A stretch of 33,086 nucleotides of DNA, from IMG/VR virus record IMGVR_UViG_3300047508_000070, positions 1 to 33,086 of that record. One strand, written 5' to 3'. The DNA is from a virus. How positions within the stretch are numbered: position 1 is the first letter of the stretch; each line of letters opens with the position of its first letter. Below the pieces are notes generated by a model, which was not told the DNA's origin, ran no database searches, and was given only the letters and a program-made list of their open reading frames with translations. Of this stretch, positions 4,310-32,253 are shown in pieces. The position numbers were made by a program, and so were the translations under genes.

Positions 4310-5031
4310 CTGGCCAGGTTGTCACCCAGCGTTTCGGCCAGGACGCTCCGGCGCGTATCGCTGCCAGCACCCCGATGTTGATGGAGGCCACCGAGATGTA
4401 CCCCCAGGAATGGACGATGCCGAACCTCATCCCGTTCTTCCCACCGCCGAGCACGACAGACGACACACCTGGGTTCATCCTCGACGCAAACGGCAATCGC
4501 ATCTGGGTCAACTTCCCCTCTCGGCTCGATCTGACCTTCTACCAAGGCGACGACGTGGTGGTGCCGCTGACGCTGCAGGACCCGATGATGGACGCCGACG
4601 ACCCGAGCACTTGGGAGTGGCACGCACAGATCAGGGTGCTGCACTACTACAAGTCCACCTTCGTCAACGACTTCATCGTGGATGCCGACTACACCGCCCC
4701 GGTAGCTCCCGAGACGACAGGCACGACCCTCGTGCAACTGTTCCTGCCGCGGGAACGCAACATCTACTGGGGCACCTACCAGTGGGAGTTGTACTCGGTC
4801 AGCCCCTTCGACTACTCCAACTTCGCGCAGCCCGATGACTGGCCCGAGGGCGAGACGTGGCCGCCTGCCGACACACTGAAGACGTGGCTGTGGGGGCAGT
4901 GCGTGATCAAGCCTCGTACCTCCACTACTGATGTGTTACCAACCATCAGCGGCGGCGGGCCGGTCTGGCCGGACATTCCTGGGTACTGGACCAGTCCGTT
5001 CGTGGTAGGCCCCAACGGTCGCGTGCCGTGA
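4306..5031 (+). CDS. Appendage/baseplate protein with LtfC-like beta-sandwich
   Basis: A 241-residue protein whose start overlaps the preceding stop (ATGA), so translation is probably coupled. The central segment (about 65-185) reads IWVNFPSRLDLTFYQGDDVVVPLTLQDP, and later WEWHAQIRV and YWGTYQWELYSV. It resembles the small beta-sandwich domains seen in tail appendages of actinophages and lactococcal phages (LtfC/p132-type). The resemblance is my pattern reading and should be treated as moderate. An N-terminal Pro-rich stretch may anchor it to the partner fibre encoded just upstream. Confidence 0.55.
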   Translation: MTGQVVTQRFGQDAPARIAASTPMLMEATEMYPQEWTMPNLIPFFPPPSTTDDTPGFILDANGNRIWVNFPSRLDLTFYQGDDVVVPLTLQDPMMDADDPSTWEWHAQIRVLHYYKSTFVNDFIVDADYTAPVAPETTGTTLVQLFLPRERNIYWGTYQWELYSVSPFDYSNFAQPDDWPEGETWPPADTLKTWLWGQCVIKPRTSTTDVLPTISGGGPVWPDIPGYWTSPFVVGPNGRVP

Positions 5032-5043
5032 GAGGATGGGGCC

Positions 5044-5484
5044 ATGACGAATCAGAACTACGCCCAGGTCACTGACCTGCTGGCAGCGGGAACACTGCAC
5101 TGGGACACCGACTCGATCCTCGCCCTGCTCGTCACCGGGGCGTCGTTCGATGCCGCCAACAAGAAGCTCAGCGACCTCGGCGCGTCGCTGGTCACCCGCG
5201 CGCCGATCCAAGGGCGCTGGCTCGCAGAGGGCGGGCTGGCCATGGGTCTTCCTGCCGCCTTCTCGATGGTCGCTGCTGGGACTCCGTTCCAGGTCCTCGT
5301 CGCTCAAGACAACGGCACGGCCGATCCGGTGCTGTTGTCATACCTCGATGAGAACGCCGATGGCAACCCGATCGAAGTACAGCGTGGCGGCACGCTGGTC
5401 GTCCGTCCCACGCAGGAGAACCTGCCCGCCCCACCCGACACCATGACGCCCCCACCGACAACGGGGCTATGGATGACGTTCTAA
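5044..5484 (+). CDS. Hypothetical structural protein
   Basis: A 146-residue protein with a purine-rich ribosome binding site (GAGAGGATGGGG) directly upstream. The first half (ITDLL-like helix, then HWDTDSILALLVTGASFD) looks like a small alpha/beta fold, and the middle PFQVLVAQDNGTADPVLLSYLDENADGNPIEV looks strand-rich. The C-terminus is Pro-rich (PAPPDTMTPPPTTG). I do not recognise the family. Its tight placement within the fibre/appendage run argues that it is in the virion or assists assembly. Confidence 0.6.
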   Translation: MTNQNYAQVTDLLAAGTLHWDTDSILALLVTGASFDAANKKLSDLGASLVTRAPIQGRWLAEGGLAMGLPAAFSMVAAGTPFQVLVAQDNGTADPVLLSYLDENADGNPIEVQRGGTLVVRPTQENLPAPPDTMTPPPTTGLWMTF

Positions 5485-5502
5485 CCCCGGTATGGAGGGA
5501 TC

Positions 5503-6342
5503 ATGACATCAGTGCTGGAGGTGGCCGCCGGAGTCCGGATGCTGTTGCGGGACTTCCCCAAGTATTTCGAGATCAGCGAAGGCCCTCTCAACGTCCTCAC
5601 CATCCGCCTCCCCCATCCCCTGGTCACACCGAACTCGTTGCAGGTCTACACGGTCACCGCTACCGACCCGGTGACGAGCGCGCTGACTGACAGTTGGACG
5701 CTCGATGAGCGCAACGGCTTGCTCAAGCTGACCGACGAGGCCCTGCTCCAGAGCAACATCGTGGTGGCCGGGTACTATCACACTTGGTTCAGCGATGCCG
5801 ACCTGGCCAAGGCGATCCACGACACGTTCGTGGAAGTGCTCTACAACACCGAGGACACGCTCGACACACTGTCCGATGCCGAAGTCGAAGTGGCCCAGAT
5901 CGGTGCGGTCGTGAGGTCGTTGTGGTCGCTGTCGATCGAGCTTGCTCTCGATATCGACGTATCGACTCCGGAGGGCATGTTCATCCCGGCCCACCAGCGC
6001 TACACCCAGGTGCTGCAGATGATGCAGTACTGGGAGAACGAGTACACCACCAAGGCTGCTTCGCTCAACATGGGCCTCGGCAAGCTGGAGCAGTGGCGTC
6101 TGCGCCGAGTCAGCTACACCACGGGGCGCTACGTGCCGGTGTACCAAGACCGCGAGTTCGATGATCCACGTTGGCCGAAGCGCCTCTACCCGCCGATCCC
6201 CGAAGGCACCACCGACGAGTCGGAGACGCCGACGTGGGCCAAGGTGCGCGAACTGGAGCAGTTGAGCGGCCACGGCATCAACTACCCAGCGGTGACGTTC
6301 CCGTCGTTCCTCGGAACAGGAGATGAGACGAGGATCGAGTAA
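5503..6342 (+). CDS. Hypothetical virion protein, possible neck/adaptor
   Basis: A 279-residue protein with a strong ribosome binding site (GGAGGG) five bases before ATG. The first ~90 residues look beta-rich (LNVLTIRLPHPLVTPNSLQVYTVTA, then DSWTLDERNGLLKLTDEAL). From about 95 on it is helical (DADLAKAIHDTFVEVLYNTEDTLDTL, VVRSLWSLSIELALDID, HQRYTQVLQMMQYWENEYTT), ending in an acidic/Pro tail. A beta domain plus helices fits head-completion or adaptor proteins, but no signature motif is visible. Its TAA overlaps the next ATG by one base (taATGg), implying coupled translation. Confidence 0.6.
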   Translation: MTSVLEVAAGVRMLLRDFPKYFEISEGPLNVLTIRLPHPLVTPNSLQVYTVTATDPVTSALTDSWTLDERNGLLKLTDEALLQSNIVVAGYYHTWFSDADLAKAIHDTFVEVLYNTEDTLDTLSDAEVEVAQIGAVVRSLWSLSIELALDIDVSTPEGMFIPAHQRYTQVLQMMQYWENEYTTKAASLNMGLGKLEQWRLRRVSYTTGRYVPVYQDREFDDPRWPKRLYPPIPEGTTDESETPTWAKVRELEQLSGHGINYPAVTFPSFLGTGDETRIE

Positions 6343-27279: not shown

Positions 27280-27308
27280 TTGCAAAGTGTTTCGTTCCGT
27301 CGTAGCTT
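27280..27308 (+). promoter_or_regulatory. Promoter of Y RNA-Ro locus
   Basis: TTGCAA (27280-27285), a 17-base spacer, and TAGCTT (27303-27308) form a SigA-like promoter. Start of transcription about 7 bases on would be near 27314-27316, which is where the first unit's stem GGTCCTGGG begins. The fit of promoter and RNA end supports both calls. The two terminators lie just upstream. No other promoter is obvious within the array. Confidence 0.7.
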
Positions 27309-27312
27309 GATC

Positions 27313-27384
27313 GGTCCTGGGCCGGAGCCAGTCGGTTATCTTCGTGAAAAGAAAACCCCGGTTGGCACCCACTCGCCTAGGACT
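27313..27384 (+). ncRNA. Y RNA-like unit 1 (short class)
   Basis: It starts at the expected transcription start. GTCCTGGG (27314-27321) pairs with CCTAGGAC (27376-27383) over 8 bp with one G-T pair, and G27313-T27384 extends it. The conserved block GGGCCGGA...GTCGGTTATC runs 27319-27340; the C at 27323 lies opposite C and stays unpaired. The inner sequence (GTGAAAAGAAAACCCCGG) has little structure and no T arm. So this looks like a minimal Y RNA with a Ro-binding stem and a loop but no tRNA domain. Confidence 0.65.
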
Positions 27385-27412
27385 TTCCTTGACAACACAA
27401 CGATCTCGCTGA

Positions 27413-27547
27413 GGGCCGAAGTCGGTCGGTTATCGCATCAGGAGCGGGTGGTCGCAGGTTCGAGTCCTGCCGTCTCCACATCGTGGGGACGTAGCTCAGT
27501 TGGCAGAGCGCCTAAAACACTCGGTTGACGCCCCTCGCCTTCAGCAC
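27413..27547 (+). ncRNA. Y RNA-like unit 2 with circularly permuted tRNA domain
   Basis: Closing helix: GCCGAAG (27415-27421) with CTTCAGC (27539-27545), with C27417 opposite A27543 and all other positions paired. The block ends in TCGGTTATC (27426-27434). Inside is a T arm (GCAGG 27454-27458, loop TTCGAGT, CCTGC 27466-27470). Then an acceptor-like stem (CGTCTCCAC 27471-27479 with GTGGGGACG 27483-27491, nine pairs with one G-T) is closed by loop ATC. A D arm follows (GCTC 27494-27497, loop AGTTGGCA, GAGC 27506-27509). The order T-acceptor-D is the reverse of a normal tRNA gene, as if a tRNA had been joined at its acceptor end and opened in the anticodon arm. This is the plan expected for YrlA-type Y RNAs. 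Confidence 0.8.
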
Positions 27548-27560
27548 TATCACAACCCTC

Positions 27561-27645
27561 GGGCCGGATGGTGTCGGTTATCCTTGACTTCCAATCAAAC
27601 CAACTCCGGTACCTACTCGCTCGTCCGAGGGACACAACTCAGCCA
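27561..27645 (+). ncRNA. Y RNA-like unit 3 (short class)
   Basis: Closing helix of 14 positions: strand 27562-27575 (GGCCGGATGGTGTC) with 27631-27644 (GACACAACTCAGCC). Only C27565-A27641, A27568-C27638 and G27570-A27636 fail to pair. The conserved block GGGCCGGA...TCGGTTATC spans 27561-27582. Inside is a small hairpin TTGA-CTTCCAA-TCAA (27584-27598) with a 7-base loop like an anticodon arm (loop bases 3-5 read TCC). There is no T or D arm. It may keep a relic of an anticodon arm, or the hairpin is chance. Confidence 0.7.
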
Positions 27646-27646
27646 A

Positions 27647-27783
27647 GGGCCGGAGAGGATCGGTTATCTCACCAGCCCCCGCAAGGGAGCGACAACCCGC
27701 CAGAACGAGAATCCTGGCAGCGGCGCAAGCCGTCAACTCGGTGCTCACTTCTCGCCCTTGGTAACACAACATAACTCTCCAGC
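27647..27783 (+). ncRNA. Y RNA-like unit 4
   Basis: Closing helix: GCCGGAGAG (27649-27657) with CTCTCCAGC (27775-27783), eight pairs with C27651 opposite A27781. The conserved block GGGCCGGA...TCGGTTATC spans 27647-27668. The interior folds into three short hairpins: GCCCCC-GCAA-GGGAGC (27675-27690, one mismatch), GCCAG-10 bases-CTGGC (27699-27718) and CGGC-GCAA-GCCG (27721-27732). Two have GNRA loops. The second loop (AACGAGAATC) is only loosely T-loop-like. The last five bases, CCAGC (27779-27783), are also the 5' edge of unit 5's best stem, so the two units cannot both form their longest stems at once. Confidence 0.65.
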
Positions 27784-27908
27784 GGGCCGACGTGAGTCGG
27801 TTATCCCAATTGGTATTACAGGTTCGATTCCTGTCCGTCAGACCGCTTCGGCCAGATGACGGAAGCTCATTTCGGTGAGCGCTCCGGTTCGCACACCTCG
27901 CCCGCTGG
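27779..27908 (+). ncRNA. Y RNA-like unit 5 with circularly permuted tRNA domain
   Basis: Closing helix: CCAGCGGGC (27779-27787) with GCCCGCTGG (27900-27908), nine perfect pairs. Then C27788 bulges, and GA/TC and GTG/CAC continue with one C-C mismatch. A single bulged C here mirrors the bulged C in Ro60-binding sites of vertebrate Y RNAs. The block GGGCCGA...TCGGTTATC spans 27784-27805. The interior has a T arm (ACAGG 27818-27822, loop TTCGATT, CCTGT 27830-27834). Next is an acceptor-like stem (CCGTCA 27835-27840 with TGACGG 27857-27862), then a D-like arm (GCTCA 27865-27869, loop TTTCGG, TGAGC 27876-27880). The order is again T-acceptor-D, with a sequence different from unit 2. Confidence 0.8.
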
Positions 27909-27927
27909 AACACAATCTGGCCCCTCC

Positions 27928-28032
27928 GGGCCGGAGCACATCGGTTATCCGCAGTGGCCTAGACGACAGTGCTCCCGCAAGGGAGAGTGAGGGTTTGATC
28001 CCCTCCCGCCGCCAACCAATCCGGTGTGCAGC
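27928..28032 (+). ncRNA. Y RNA-like unit 6 with T-arm-containing tRNA-like part
   Basis: The conserved block GGGCCGGA...TCGGTTATC spans 27928-27949. GCACATCGG (27936-27944) pairs with CCGGTGTGC (28021-28029) over nine positions with one T-G pair. GC (27930-27931) may pair with GC (28031-28032) outside an internal loop. The interior has a hairpin CTCCC-GCAA-GGGAG (27972-27985) and a T arm (GAGGG 27989-27993, loop TTTGATC, CCCTC 28001-28005). After that comes GCCGCCAACCA, like a tRNA 3' end. Here the T arm comes last, so this unit keeps the normal tRNA order but has lost its 5' acceptor strand. It ends about ten bases before the Ro ribosome binding site. Confidence 0.65.
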
Positions 28033-28051
28033 TACTCGACTGGAGGAACAC

Positions 28052-29629
28052 ATGACGGACCCATTGAAGACCATTTCTACGCGGCAGACGCCGCAGGACC
28101 AGCCGATTCCCGGCACGGTCCCCAACTCCGCTGGCGGCTATTCGTTCGCCGTTGACAAGTGGGGTCGGCTCAACCGCTTCCTGATCCTTGGTACCCAGGG
28201 CGGCAGCTACTACGCATCCGAGCGCAAGCTGACCAAGGAGAACGCCGACGTGCTGTTCGCCTGCATCGCAGAGGACGGCCCGCGCGTCGTGGACACCATC
28301 GTTGACATCTCCGTCAACGGCCGCAACCCCAAGCAGGCCCCTGTCCTGTTCGCTCTGGCCGTGTGCTCGGGCGCAACGGACCAGGCGACCCGTTCGGCAG
28401 CGCTTGCTGCCATCCCCAAGGTGTGCCGCACCGGCACCATGCTCTTCCAGTTCGTCGGCTACGCCGAGCAGTTCCGTGGCTGGGGCCGTGGTCTGCGCGA
28501 GGCCGTTGCCAAGTGGTACACGGAGCGCTCTGTCTCGTCTCTGGCGATGCAGGTCGCCAAGTACCAGCAGCGCGAGGGTTGGGGCCACCGTGACCTCCTG
28601 CGCCTGTCCAAGCCCCGACCGGCGCGCGGTGAGTCGCACGATCAGGTGTTGAAGTGGGCTGTCGGCAAGGACCCCGAGCCGACCTTCCCCTTCCTGGCCG
28701 CTGTCGAAGACATCAAGACGGCACCGCTGAACCACGCTGTCACGCTGGTAACTCAGCACAAGCTGCCGTGGGAGGTCGTCCCCGACCACCTCATGAACGA
28801 GCCGAAGATGCTCGCCGCGCTCGTGGAGCCGATGGGCATCACCGCACTGGTGCGCCAGTTGAGCCGCCTCACGGCGACCGGCACGATCAAGTCGCTCGGT
28901 GGCCAGATCAACCTCGACAAGGTGCTCGACAAGCTGACCGACGAGCAGTTGGTCAAGGCCTCGCGCATCCACCCGCTGACCGTCCTCGTTGCCCTCAAGG
29001 CCTACGAGAAGGGCAAGGGTCGGCACCTGGACTGGAGTCCGATTCCGCGGGTTGTAGACGCCCTCAACGACACCTTCAAGCTGGCCTTCGGCAACGTCGT
29101 GCCCTCCAACAAGCGCACGCTCATCGCCCTCGATACCTCGGCGTCGATGACGTGGAGCAACATCGCCGGTACCGAACTGACGCCTAGCGTCGGTTCGATC
29201 GCCATGGCGCTGGTCACTGCGGTCACCGAGCCGGAGTATCACATCATGGCGTTCAGCCACCAGTTGGTGAACATCCCTGGCATCACCGCCAAGAGTTCGC
29301 TGCAGGCGGCCATGGCTGCAACTGCCAAGGTCGGTGGAGGCGGCACCGACTGCTCGCTGCCGATGACCACGGCGCTCAAGGCCGGTTGGGACGTGGAGCA
29401 CTTCGTCGTCTACACCGACAACGAGACGTGGGCCGGTCGTCAGCACCCGGTGCAGGCGCTCAAGGCTTACCGCGACAAGCGCGGTATCCCTGCTCGCCTG
29501 ACGGTGGTCGGCATGGTCTCCAACGGCTTCTCGATTGCCGACCCCAACGACGCGGGCATGCTCGATGTCGTCGGCTTCGACACTGCAGCGCCGCAGTTGA
29601 TCGCTGACTTCGGTGGAGGCCGCATCTGA
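28052..29629 (+). CDS. Ro60/Rsr-like TROVE protein
   Basis: A 525-residue full-length Ro protein. The ATG at 28052 has GGAGG (28042-28046) upstream; the frame is open further back through the RNA array but without a good start. It begins NSAGGYSFAVDKWGRLNRFLILGT, the conserved start of the TROVE HEAT-repeat ring (GYxFxVDxWxRLxRFLIxG). Then YYASERKLTKENADVL and GWGHRDLLRLSKPRP, both very typical of Ro60. The C-terminal VWA domain keeps a full metal site: D361-T-S363-A-S365, T432 and D456. Ro rings bind the stem of Y RNAs and misfolded RNA ends; in Deinococcus a Y RNA links Ro to PNPase. The six RNA units directly upstream on the same strand are its likely partners. Confidence 0.92.
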   Translation: MTDPLKTISTRQTPQDQPIPGTVPNSAGGYSFAVDKWGRLNRFLILGTQGGSYYASERKLTKENADVLFACIAEDGPRVVDTIVDISVNGRNPKQAPVLFALAVCSGATDQATRSAALAAIPKVCRTGTMLFQFVGYAEQFRGWGRGLREAVAKWYTERSVSSLAMQVAKYQQREGWGHRDLLRLSKPRPARGESHDQVLKWAVGKDPEPTFPFLAAVEDIKTAPLNHAVTLVTQHKLPWEVVPDHLMNEPKMLAALVEPMGITALVRQLSRLTATGTIKSLGGQINLDKVLDKLTDEQLVKASRIHPLTVLVALKAYEKGKGRHLDWSPIPRVVDALNDTFKLAFGNVVPSNKRTLIALDTSASMTWSNIAGTELTPSVGSIAMALVTAVTEPEYHIMAFSHQLVNIPGITAKSSLQAAMAATAKVGGGGTDCSLPMTTALKAGWDVEHFVVYTDNETWAGRQHPVQALKAYRDKRGIPARLTVVGMVSNGFSIADPNDAGMLDVVGFDTAAPQLIADFGGGRI

Positions 29630-30639: not shown

Positions 30640-32253
30640 TCAGTGCAAGATGGTGTCAGCCGTTCGCAGCGCCAGAGCCGCCAACGTCAGTGTCGGGTTG
30701 GCTGTGCCCTCGGTGGGGAACACGCTCGACCCGGCGATGAACATGTTGGGCACGTCGTGAGAACGACAGTCGCGGTCCACTACTGATGTGTGTGGATCGT
30801 TGCCCATGTTGGTGGTGCCGATGATGTGTCCGGCTCCGAACAGGAATGGGACGTGATGCCGGTCGGTGGCATTCATCGCCTCAAACAGCCGCTCATGAAG
30901 CGCCTCTGCTTCGGCAGCACCATCGTTGACGTAGCGGCCGATGGTGAAGCTGATCCGCGGTCGAGGGATGCCGATGGCATCGACGTTGGCGAAGTCGGGC
31001 ACGATCCGGTTCTCGGGGTTGGGCAACTGCTCGGTCAGTGAGCCGAAGCGGAACTCACGAGTGACGTGATCGCGCCAGCGATCGCGCAGGGCGTTGCCGC
31101 CCTCCCGAAGCTGGACGAACGTCCCGGCACCATCGGGCTGGGCAGTGAACTCGAATGTCGGATCACCGATCGGGAACTTCCAACCGTCGTTGCCGATTTC
31201 GACACGGAACGCCGAGTGGTCGCCGCGCGTTGCTGCCTGGCGAGTGCTCTCGATTCCTGCTGTGCTCAGCGGGCCACGCTGACCGAACACCGGCTCGTCG
31301 CTGAGCGCGTAGCTCAGCTTGATCGGGTGATCCATCAGGTTGCGGCCCACCATGTCCGACGAGTTGCCGACACCGGCACCACCGTTGGCCATCAGCATGA
31401 TCTTCGGTGTCTCGATGGCATTGGCTGCCAGTATCACAATGTCGGCCAGGACTGTCACGTTGCTCTTGTCGGGCTTGCGGTAGACGACACCCGTGGCCCT
31501 GCCGTTGCTGACGAGGATGTCGTGAACGACGGCGTTGGGGATGATCTTGGCACCATGCTCGCGAGCCAGATCGAGATGGATCAGGGCGTCGTACTTGGCA
31601 CCGATCGGACACACCGGGATGCAGTTGGAGTTGCCCACGCAGTGGTGGCGATCGTTGTACGTCTCGGAGTTGCGGGCCTGTGGCGTCCCCAAGACCTCAA
31701 GGCCGAGCTTGGCTGCTGCCTTGGCGATGATGCCGTCGAGGTAGCTGGTGGGGATTTCCTCCATCGGGAACGGTGCGGACCGCGGTGAGCCTTGGTCAAC
31801 GGCGCTGTTGCCAGCAACACCGATGGCGACCTCGGCGCGGACGTACCACGGCTCCAACTCGTTGTAGGTGATCGGCCAATCGACGCCGACGCCGAACAGG
31901 CTGTGCAGGTTGAAGTCGGACGGCAGCAGGCGTGGGCAAGAGCCGAGCCAGTGCCACGTCGTGCCGCCGACGATGCGCTCGTAGGTCGAGCCGAACGGAT
32001 CGGGGCCGTTCTGGATGAAGTAGCCGGTGCCGGGGACACCGATCTCCAACACGCTCGGGCGTGGTGCCCAGGGCGTGTTCGGATAGGGCGACTCGGGGAC
32101 CTTGGCGGTTGCCGCACGGAAGGTCGCCACGGCGACATCTCGGTCCTGCGGAGGGCCAGCCTCCAAGATGGTCACGTTCATGCCAGCCTTGGCCAGCTTC
32201 CAGCCGACCAGTGCTCCGGCAACGCCGGAGCCAACGATTACTGCGTTCGTCAT
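30640..32253 (-). CDS. GMC-family FAD dehydrogenase (gluconate/sorbitol-dehydrogenase type large subunit)
   Basis: A 537-residue flavoprotein on the minus strand. The N-terminus has the FAD-binding motif AVIVGSGVAGALVGWKLAKA, then ILEAGPP. Near the C-terminus H-I-I-G-T-T-N-M-G and F-P-T-E-G-T-A-N-P-T-L-T carry the GMC catalytic His and Asn, and a final GMC flavin loop (NMFIAGSSVFP). A cluster H-H-C205-V-G-N-S-N-C211-I-P-V-C215-P-I-G-A resembles the 3Fe-4S-binding segment of three-subunit FAD sugar dehydrogenases; the first Cys is shifted by one, so cluster binding is uncertain. The partner small subunit is encoded just upstream and overlaps by ATGA. The substrate cannot be read. It could oxidise a sugar or alcohol and feed electrons to the host chain. 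Confidence 0.85.
   Translation of the reverse strand: MTNAVIVGSGVAGALVGWKLAKAGMNVTILEAGPPQDRDVAVATFRAATAKVPESPYPNTPWAPRPSVLEIGVPGTGYFIQNGPDPFGSTYERIVGGTTWHWLGSCPRLLPSDFNLHSLFGVGVDWPITYNELEPWYVRAEVAIGVAGNSAVDQGSPRSAPFPMEEIPTSYLDGIIAKAAAKLGLEVLGTPQARNSETYNDRHHCVGNSNCIPVCPIGAKYDALIHLDLAREHGAKIIPNAVVHDILVSNGRATGVVYRKPDKSNVTVLADIVILAANAIETPKIMLMANGGAGVGNSSDMVGRNLMDHPIKLSYALSDEPVFGQRGPLSTAGIESTRQAATRGDHSAFRVEIGNDGWKFPIGDPTFEFTAQPDGAGTFVQLREGGNALRDRWRDHVTREFRFGSLTEQLPNPENRIVPDFANVDAIGIPRPRISFTIGRYVNDGAAEAEALHERLFEAMNATDRHHVPFLFGAGHIIGTTNMGNDPHTSVVDRDCRSHDVPNMFIAGSSVFPTEGTANPTLTLAALALRTADTILH

What the first reader, a model, noticed from the sequence alone, without database searches (positions are those of the whole stretch)
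27309..28052. Six tandem Y RNA-like genes leading into a Ro60 gene in a phage
Six units carry the same block, GGGCCGRA then exactly enough bases to end in TCGGTTATC: 27319-27340, 27413-27434, 27561-27582, 27647-27668, 27784-27805 and 27928-27949. Each block is 22 nt long. A 3' strand 50-125 bases on can pair with it. They fill an 800-base stretch without a real gene, read in the same direction as the full-length Ro gene that follows. Known: bacterial and some phage Ro60 genes have nearby Y RNAs, usually one or a few. Inference: this is a phage Ro-Y RNA cassette with an unusually large number of RNAs, in short (1, 3) and long (2, 4, 5, 6) classes, possibly giving one Ro protein several interchangeable RNA adaptors for different nucleases or targets.
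Basis: partly seen in the sequence, partly recalled or inferred. Interest (0 to 1): 0.93.

Follow-up and report, generated by a model that had tools for sequence, protein, structure and literature searches.

The report
Phage Ro60 operon with Y RNAs
A phage carries six back-to-back genes for small Y RNAs, the partners of the RNA quality-control protein Ro60, directly in front of its own Ro60 gene, and the last of the six is fused to the start of that gene in a way that could let Ro60 switch off its own production.

Summary
Six 22-nt blocks lie at the stated coordinates (0 expected). Each is the 5' strand of a two-helix Y-RNA stem; a covariance model recovers all six (E 2e-13 to 3e-6). The gene behind them is Ro60/Rsr (TROVE + vWA; PDB 2NVO, E 1e-108). 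Units 1 and 3 are short. Units 2 and 5 carry a circularly permuted tRNA body without an anticodon arm, the known YrlA design. Unit 4 has another module; unit 6 has a T-arm only. Bacterial and phage Y RNAs are known, and six is high but not exceptional: 9 of 154 comparable Ro loci have six or more, one has eight.

Two features seem new. One promoter-like site (TTGCNN-N17-TANNTT, 5-7 nt before unit 1) precedes the array in six of six relatives. And unit 6 is fused to ro: its lower stem contains the ro Shine-Dalgarno. In those relatives an upstream UCUGGCCC can instead form a hairpin that frees that site; the five strongest such hairpins among 369 units are exactly the five units holding a Shine-Dalgarno. 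Best reading: one operon of five free Y RNAs plus a Y-RNA operator by which Ro represses its own translation. The array is near certain; the autoregulation is inferred and untested.

The parts
27280..27308 (+). promoter-like site TTGCAA-N17-TAGCTT, 5 nt before unit 1
   Evidence: TTGCNN-N17-TANNTT 5-7 nt before the first Y unit in window, L002, L019, L020, L022, L194; 3 of 4698 50-nt stretches of the window carry TTGNNN-N17-TANNNT. The strict sigma-70 scan does not list it.
27314..27383 (+). Y RNA 1, short (70 nt)
   Evidence: model from other phages E=3.3e-9; R2 69 bits; Rfam RF01656 36.3 bits, cut-off 38
27408..27545 (+). Y RNA 2, long; T-arm, acceptor stem and D-arm in circularly permuted order (YrlA type)
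   Evidence: R2 42.5 bits E=1.4e-7; Rfam YrlA 38.2 bits E=1.3e-6, cut-off 69; ARAGORN calls a tRNA after rotation, 0/10 shuffles
27556..27631 (+). Y RNA 3, short (76 nt)
   Evidence: model from other phages E=1.1e-7; R2 55.9 bits
27642..27762 (+). Y RNA 4, long; three-hairpin module that is not tRNA-like, nearly identical in L002
   Evidence: R2 36.5 bits E=3.2e-6; fold z=-3.1; core found only in window and L002
27779..27908 (+). Y RNA 5, long; permuted tRNA-like module
   Evidence: R2 43.7 bits E=8.1e-8; Rfam YrlA 26 bits; fold z=-3.5; ARAGORN after rotation
27916..27935 (+). alternative hairpin TCTGGCCC-CTCC-GGGCCGGA that competes with stem 1 of unit 6
   Evidence: present in 6/6 relatives; the five strongest of 369 unit-flank hairpins are the five SD-containing units; energies
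27923..28046 (+). Y RNA 6 / ro leader: stem 1, stem 2, TTATC loop, T-arm module; 3' strand of stem 1 holds the Shine-Dalgarno
   Evidence: R2 45.7 bits E=2.9e-8; stem 2 covaries in six leaders, 7 of 9 pairs with double changes, 0/500 shuffles
28042..28046 (+). Shine-Dalgarno GGAGG of ro, inside stem 1 of unit 6
   Evidence: 5 nt before ATG 28052; same arrangement in L002, L019, L020, L022, L194
28052..29629 (+). ro gene, 525 aa, Ro60/Rsr (TROVE + vWA)
   Evidence: Pfam vWA_Ro60 1.6e-58, TROVE 9.7e-37; PDB 2NVO (D. radiodurans Rsr) 1e-108; phrog_850 1.2e-79

Best explanation
A phage Ro60/Y RNA operon. Transcription starts just before unit 1 from one promoter; the transcript holds six Y RNA folds and then ro. 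Units 1-5 are cut out at the short A/C-rich spacers (ACACAAC type) and are held by the phage Ro through their lower stems. The tRNA-like units (2, 5) tether Ro to a nuclease, as YrlA-type Y RNAs do with PNPase, or compete with tRNA-binding enzymes; the short units (1, 3) lack such a module and can only gate Ro. Unit 6 stays on the ro mRNA as its operator: free RNA prefers an upstream hairpin that leaves the Shine-Dalgarno open; when Ro is in excess over the other Y RNAs it binds unit 6, favours the Y fold, closes the Shine-Dalgarno and stops more Ro being made. Shown: the folds, their conservation, the Ro gene, the shared promoter-like site, the overlap with the Shine-Dalgarno, the conserved alternative fold. 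Inferred: transcription, processing, Ro binding, the nuclease partner, the feedback.
For: Six blocks, 0 by chance. R1, built from other phages only, finds units 1 and 3 (E 3e-9, 1e-7); R2 finds all six. Over 177 Ro loci R2 gives 365 hits, all on the ro strand, none inside ro, 305 upstream and 60 downstream; the 145 hits in bacterial genome loci were not used in training. Covariation: 363 double-change cells over 74 units, 0/500 shuffles; 38 in window + L002. Permuted tRNA body in units 2 and 5. Ro60 identity. Promoter-like site 6/6. SD inside the last unit in window, L002, L019, L020, L022 but not in 107 other loci with a recognisable SD; the five strongest upstream-flank hairpins among 369 units belong to exactly these five; L194 adds a sixth. 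Predicted energies favour the SD-open alternative by about 2-3.4 kcal/mol over the Y fold in five leaders. Stem 2 of the six leaders covaries, and all six share a G.A mismatch in stem 1. Literature: Rsr-Y RNA-PNPase complex and tRNA-like YrlA (PMC8394870, PMC4726728).
Against: No RNA or protein data. The strict sigma-70 scan lists no promoter here. The SD-holding stem 1 varies on one side only, so its pairing in the leader is not proven by covariation. Energies of single folds are uncertain by several kcal/mol, and the MFE folds pair part of the SD weakly even in the alternative state. The six leaders are related phages, so they are not six independent origins. L020's leader lacks the TTATC loop.
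Confidence: 0.72

Rival explanations
1. All six units, including unit 6, are ordinary free Y RNAs and the overlap with the ro Shine-Dalgarno is only compact packing; no feedback on ro.
For: Phage genomes are compact; in 107 other Ro loci the last Y RNA ends clear of the ribosome-binding site. Unit 6 has a full Y fold and a T-arm module like other long units.
Against: The UCUGGCCC flank is unchanged in all six relatives although the modules between have diverged, it occurs only before the last unit, and the top five flank hairpins of 369 are exactly the SD-containing ones.
Confidence: 0.25
2. The tRNA-like Y RNAs serve defence: decoys that protect tRNAs from host anticodon nucleases, with Ro stabilising them, rather than tethers for a nuclease.
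For: Units 2 and 5 have a tRNA body with no anticodon arm. PMC7790460 proposes that YrlA could competitively inhibit the anticodon nuclease. PMC7824862 places phage TROVE proteins among RNA-repair functions.
Against: No RtcB, RNA ligase or kinase was identified in this window among the proteins tested (not every ORF tested). Short units without a tRNA module are not explained.
Confidence: 0.2
3. The units are degenerate or permuted tRNA or tmRNA genes, not Y RNAs.
For: Weak Rfam hits of unit 2 to tmRNA_permuted (24 bits) and tmRNA (17 bits).
Against: ARAGORN finds no tRNA or tmRNA in the window; no anticodon arm; hits far below cut-offs (47); four of six units have no D-arm; all six share the Ro-binding stem next to Ro.
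Confidence: 0.02

Closest known systems
Bacterial Y RNAs (YrlA/YrlB of Salmonella, Y RNA of Deinococcus radiodurans, Y RNAs of Mycobacterium smegmatis; Chen et al. 2014 report them near Ro60 in bacteria and phages)
   Same: Ro60 gene next door, lower stem with conserved bulge, tRNA-like module in permuted order in at least one unit, 70-150 nt
   Different: six in one tandem array, below the Rfam YrlA cut-off, one with a different module, and the last fused to the ro ribosome-binding site
[quoted passage not shown]
   Same: same stem model, same strand as ro, short and tRNA-like classes side by side
   Different: Ro only 39-47% identical; Y RNAs end clear of the ro Shine-Dalgarno; in Forza and Sixama several lie among tRNA genes downstream of ro
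IMG/VR contigs L002, L019, L020, L022, L194
   Same: 52-63% identical Ro in L002, L019, L020 and L022; 4-6 Y units, same promoter-like site, same leader overlap and flank hairpin
   Different: different number and kind of middle units; unit 5 of the window is absent from L002
Nematode stem-bulge RNAs (Rfam RF01656)
   Same: two-stem layout, GUUAUC at the loop entry; four units score 23-36 bits
   Different: all below the cut-off of 38; eukaryotic Pol III genes
Autogenous translational operators such as ribosomal protein leaders
   Same: mRNA leader imitates the protein's normal RNA target and contains the Shine-Dalgarno
   Different: the imitated RNA is a Y RNA; no such case for Ro was found in the papers searched

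Membership tests
Ro60/Rsr protein | TROVE ring plus vWA domain over the full length | tested here: met
   Pfam TROVE 9.7e-37 and vWA_Ro60 1.6e-58; D. radiodurans Rsr 2NVO, residues 5-524, 1e-108; DxSxS of the vWA metal site present in the alignment
Bacterial Y RNA | gene near a Ro60 gene | tested here: met
   six units within 740 nt upstream of ro, same strand
Bacterial Y RNA | long lower stem from the 5' and 3' ends with a conserved bulged Ro-binding site | tested here: met
   covariance model and covariation
Bacterial Y RNA | at least one RNA per locus with a tRNA-like domain | tested here: met
   units 2 and 5
Bacterial Y RNA | bound by the Ro60 protein in the cell | not testable with these tools
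   needs pull-down
Rfam YrlA RF02553 | score at or above the gathering cut-off of 69 bits | tested here: not met
   best 38.2 bits for unit 2 and 26 for unit 5; so not filed as a member of this Rfam family as defined
Rfam RF01656 nematode sbRNA | score at or above 38 bits | tested here: not met
   36.3, 30.5, 27.2 and 23.1 bits
tRNA / tmRNA | complete cloverleaf with anticodon, or tag reading frame | tested here: not met
   none found by ARAGORN
Autogenous translational operator | Shine-Dalgarno enclosed in a fold that resembles the protein's RNA target, with an alternative open fold | tested here: met
   (sequence and predicted folds only)
Autogenous translational operator | the protein represses its own synthesis through that site | not testable with these tools
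   needs a reporter or toeprint experiment

The most novel reading that the evidence does not exclude
The last Y RNA of the array is a Ro-sensing switch in the ro mRNA: a Y fold that closes the ro Shine-Dalgarno competes with a conserved upstream hairpin that opens it, so that Ro made in excess of its Y RNAs shuts off its own translation and the Ro:Y RNA ratio is kept in balance.
Probability: 0.5. Interest if true: 0.7.

Novelty: new variant of a known kind. Interest (0 to 1): 0.52.

Why it matters
How bacteria and phages keep Ro and its Y RNAs in balance is not described in the papers I could read. A leader that imitates a Y RNA and holds the ro Shine-Dalgarno would be a direct, easily tested answer, and would supply a simple reporter for Ro-Y RNA binding. 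The array also places several upper modules on one stem in a single phage, so the roles of short, tRNA-like and other Y RNAs can be compared one by one. The models built here find Y RNAs at most Ro loci in phages and bacteria, where annotation usually shows none or a wrong tRNA.

Tried and rejected
Rfam at gathering cut-offs found nothing in the window; only the permissive search gave the YrlA and sbRNA hits. R1 with filters off did worse than with filters for long units, because its training rows had a 4-nt loop; R2, trained with real loops, solved this. A first motif scan with simple pairing scores was too noisy to count units (shuffled sequence reached 45) and was used only to collect candidates. 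A known actinophage relative by DNA was not found. The main papers on bacterial Y RNAs (Chen 2014, Sim and Wolin 2018, Wang 2018) are not held, so their exact counts of Y RNAs per locus could not be checked; what I say of Chen 2014 comes from papers citing it and from memory. Rejected: tRNA or tmRNA remnants, chance repeats, coding repeats (the frames over the array do not persist and the pairs covary).

Full report
What is there. The window is a 33-kb virus record with a major head protein and a contractile tail sheath. Each block is the 5' half of a fold: 9-bp stem 1, a CGR bulge, a second stem of up to 9 bp, then TTATC at the loop entry; the 3' half ends in CTCG and the stem 1 partner. Between the six window units and the five units of the closest relative L002, 97.4% of pair cells are standard, 9 of 18 pairs have changes on both sides, and no shuffle of 500 comes near.

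Are they Y RNAs? A covariance model built only from other phages' units finds units 1 and 3 at E 3e-9 and 1e-7. A second model, built from the hits of the first over 98 sources (its training rows include units 1 and 3 of the window but not 2, 4, 5, 6), finds all six at E 2e-13 to 3e-6 and nothing else in the window up to E 10. Rfam's YrlA model matches unit 2 (38.2 bits, E 1.3e-6) and unit 5, and the nematode sbRNA model matches units 1, 3, 5 and 6, all below the curated cut-offs. The gene behind is Ro60: TROVE and Ro60 vWA domains, D. radiodurans Rsr as a close solved relative.

How unusual is six? I fetched 177 Ro loci (phages, IMG/VR, bacterial genomes). The second model gives 365 hits; every one is on the ro strand and none lies in the ro frame; 305 are upstream and 60 downstream. 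This is a strong control, above all for the 145 hits in bacterial loci, which were not in the training set. Of 154 loci with at least 1500 nt upstream, 9 have six or more; the most is eight, in Rhodococcus phage Trina. These loci were chosen for similarity to this Ro, so the share is not a census. Six is therefore high, not exceptional.

Classes. Unit lengths over all loci fall in two groups, 60-80 and 120-150 nt; 51 of 62 loci with three or more units have both a short unit and one with a T-arm. In the window, units 2 and 5 have T-arm, acceptor and D-arm in permuted order. When the module is rotated and given a neutral anticodon arm, ARAGORN calls a tRNA for units 2 and 5 and for the matching units of L002, L019 and L020, and for no shuffled insert. 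Unit 4 has three hairpins and no tRNA features; its core is found again only in L002. Unit 6 has a T-arm without a D-arm.

One operon. A site TTGCNN-N17-TANNTT lies 5-7 nt before unit 1 in the window and in L002, L019, L020, L022 and L194; the looser TTGNNN-N17-TANNNT occurs in 3 of 4698 50-nt stretches of the window. The strict consensus scan does not list it. The spacers between units are short and often hold ACACAAC, a plausible processing site; this is inference.

The leader. Unit 6 ends in GACTGGAGG, 5 nt before the ro ATG, so the Shine-Dalgarno is the 3' strand of stem 1. The same holds in L002, L019, L020 and L022 and in L194, found by a pattern scan of IMG/VR. In 107 other loci with a recognisable Shine-Dalgarno it lies outside the last unit. 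Just before unit 6 stands TCTGGCCC, which can pair with GGGCCGGA of unit 6 and so open stem 1. Ranked by the predicted energy of such a flank hairpin, the first five of 369 units are exactly the five with the Shine-Dalgarno inside. The flank is invariant in six phages while the modules behind it have diverged and stem 2 covaries (7 of 9 pairs with double changes). All six leaders also have a G.A mismatch in stem 1, rare in other units (4 of 74), which would weaken the closed fold. Predicted energies favour the open fold: window -53.4 (SD kept free) against -50.0 (Y fold), L002 -53.9/-51.5, L019 -51.0/-49.2, L020 -44.6/-42.6, L022 -32.7/-29.9 kcal/mol. Binding of Ro could tip this small difference. 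That is the inferred feedback.

Known and new. Rsr bound to tRNA-like Y RNA and PNPase is established in D. radiodurans and YrlA is a tRNA mimic (PMC8394870, PMC4726728); phage Y RNAs have been predicted (PMC12282133 citing Chen et al. 2014), and phage Ro overproduction was toxic in a mycobacterial screen (PMC13148394), which would give a reason for feedback. I found no report of a Y RNA as a ro operator in the papers held; papers not held may have one. So: a new variant of a known kind.

Noticed in passing
L007 (prophage GD43A-5, MW584167.1) 1747-1825: An annotated tRNA-Thr(tgt) overlaps a Y RNA hit (1753-1884) upstream of ro and is probably a tRNA-like Y RNA annotated as a tRNA.
   Followed up: partly
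L016 (Rhodococcus phage Trina, NC_042040.1) 2143-2351: A pseudo 'tRNA-OTHER' overlaps a Y RNA hit (2278-2412); this locus has eight Y RNA hits, the most found.
   Followed up: partly
L006 and L009 (Gordonia phages Forza and Sixama), 4891-5679: Y RNA units lie between tRNA genes downstream of ro, as if Y RNAs and tRNAs were shuffled in one cluster.
   Followed up: no
window 30640-32253, - strand: A GMC oxidoreductase (Pfam 1.2e-18 and 1e-15) lies antisense after ro, unexpected in a phage.
   Followed up: no
window 27642-27762 and L002 4730-4848: The module of unit 4 (CCCCCGCAAGGGAGC, CCAGAACGAGAATCCTGG, GCGGCGCAAGCCG) is nearly unchanged between two phages whose other modules differ, so its sequence may be read by a specific partner.
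   Followed up: partly
L019 3631-3784: A 154-nt gap between units 4 and 5 of this array is structured-looking and not matched by the model; possibly a divergent unit.
   Followed up: no
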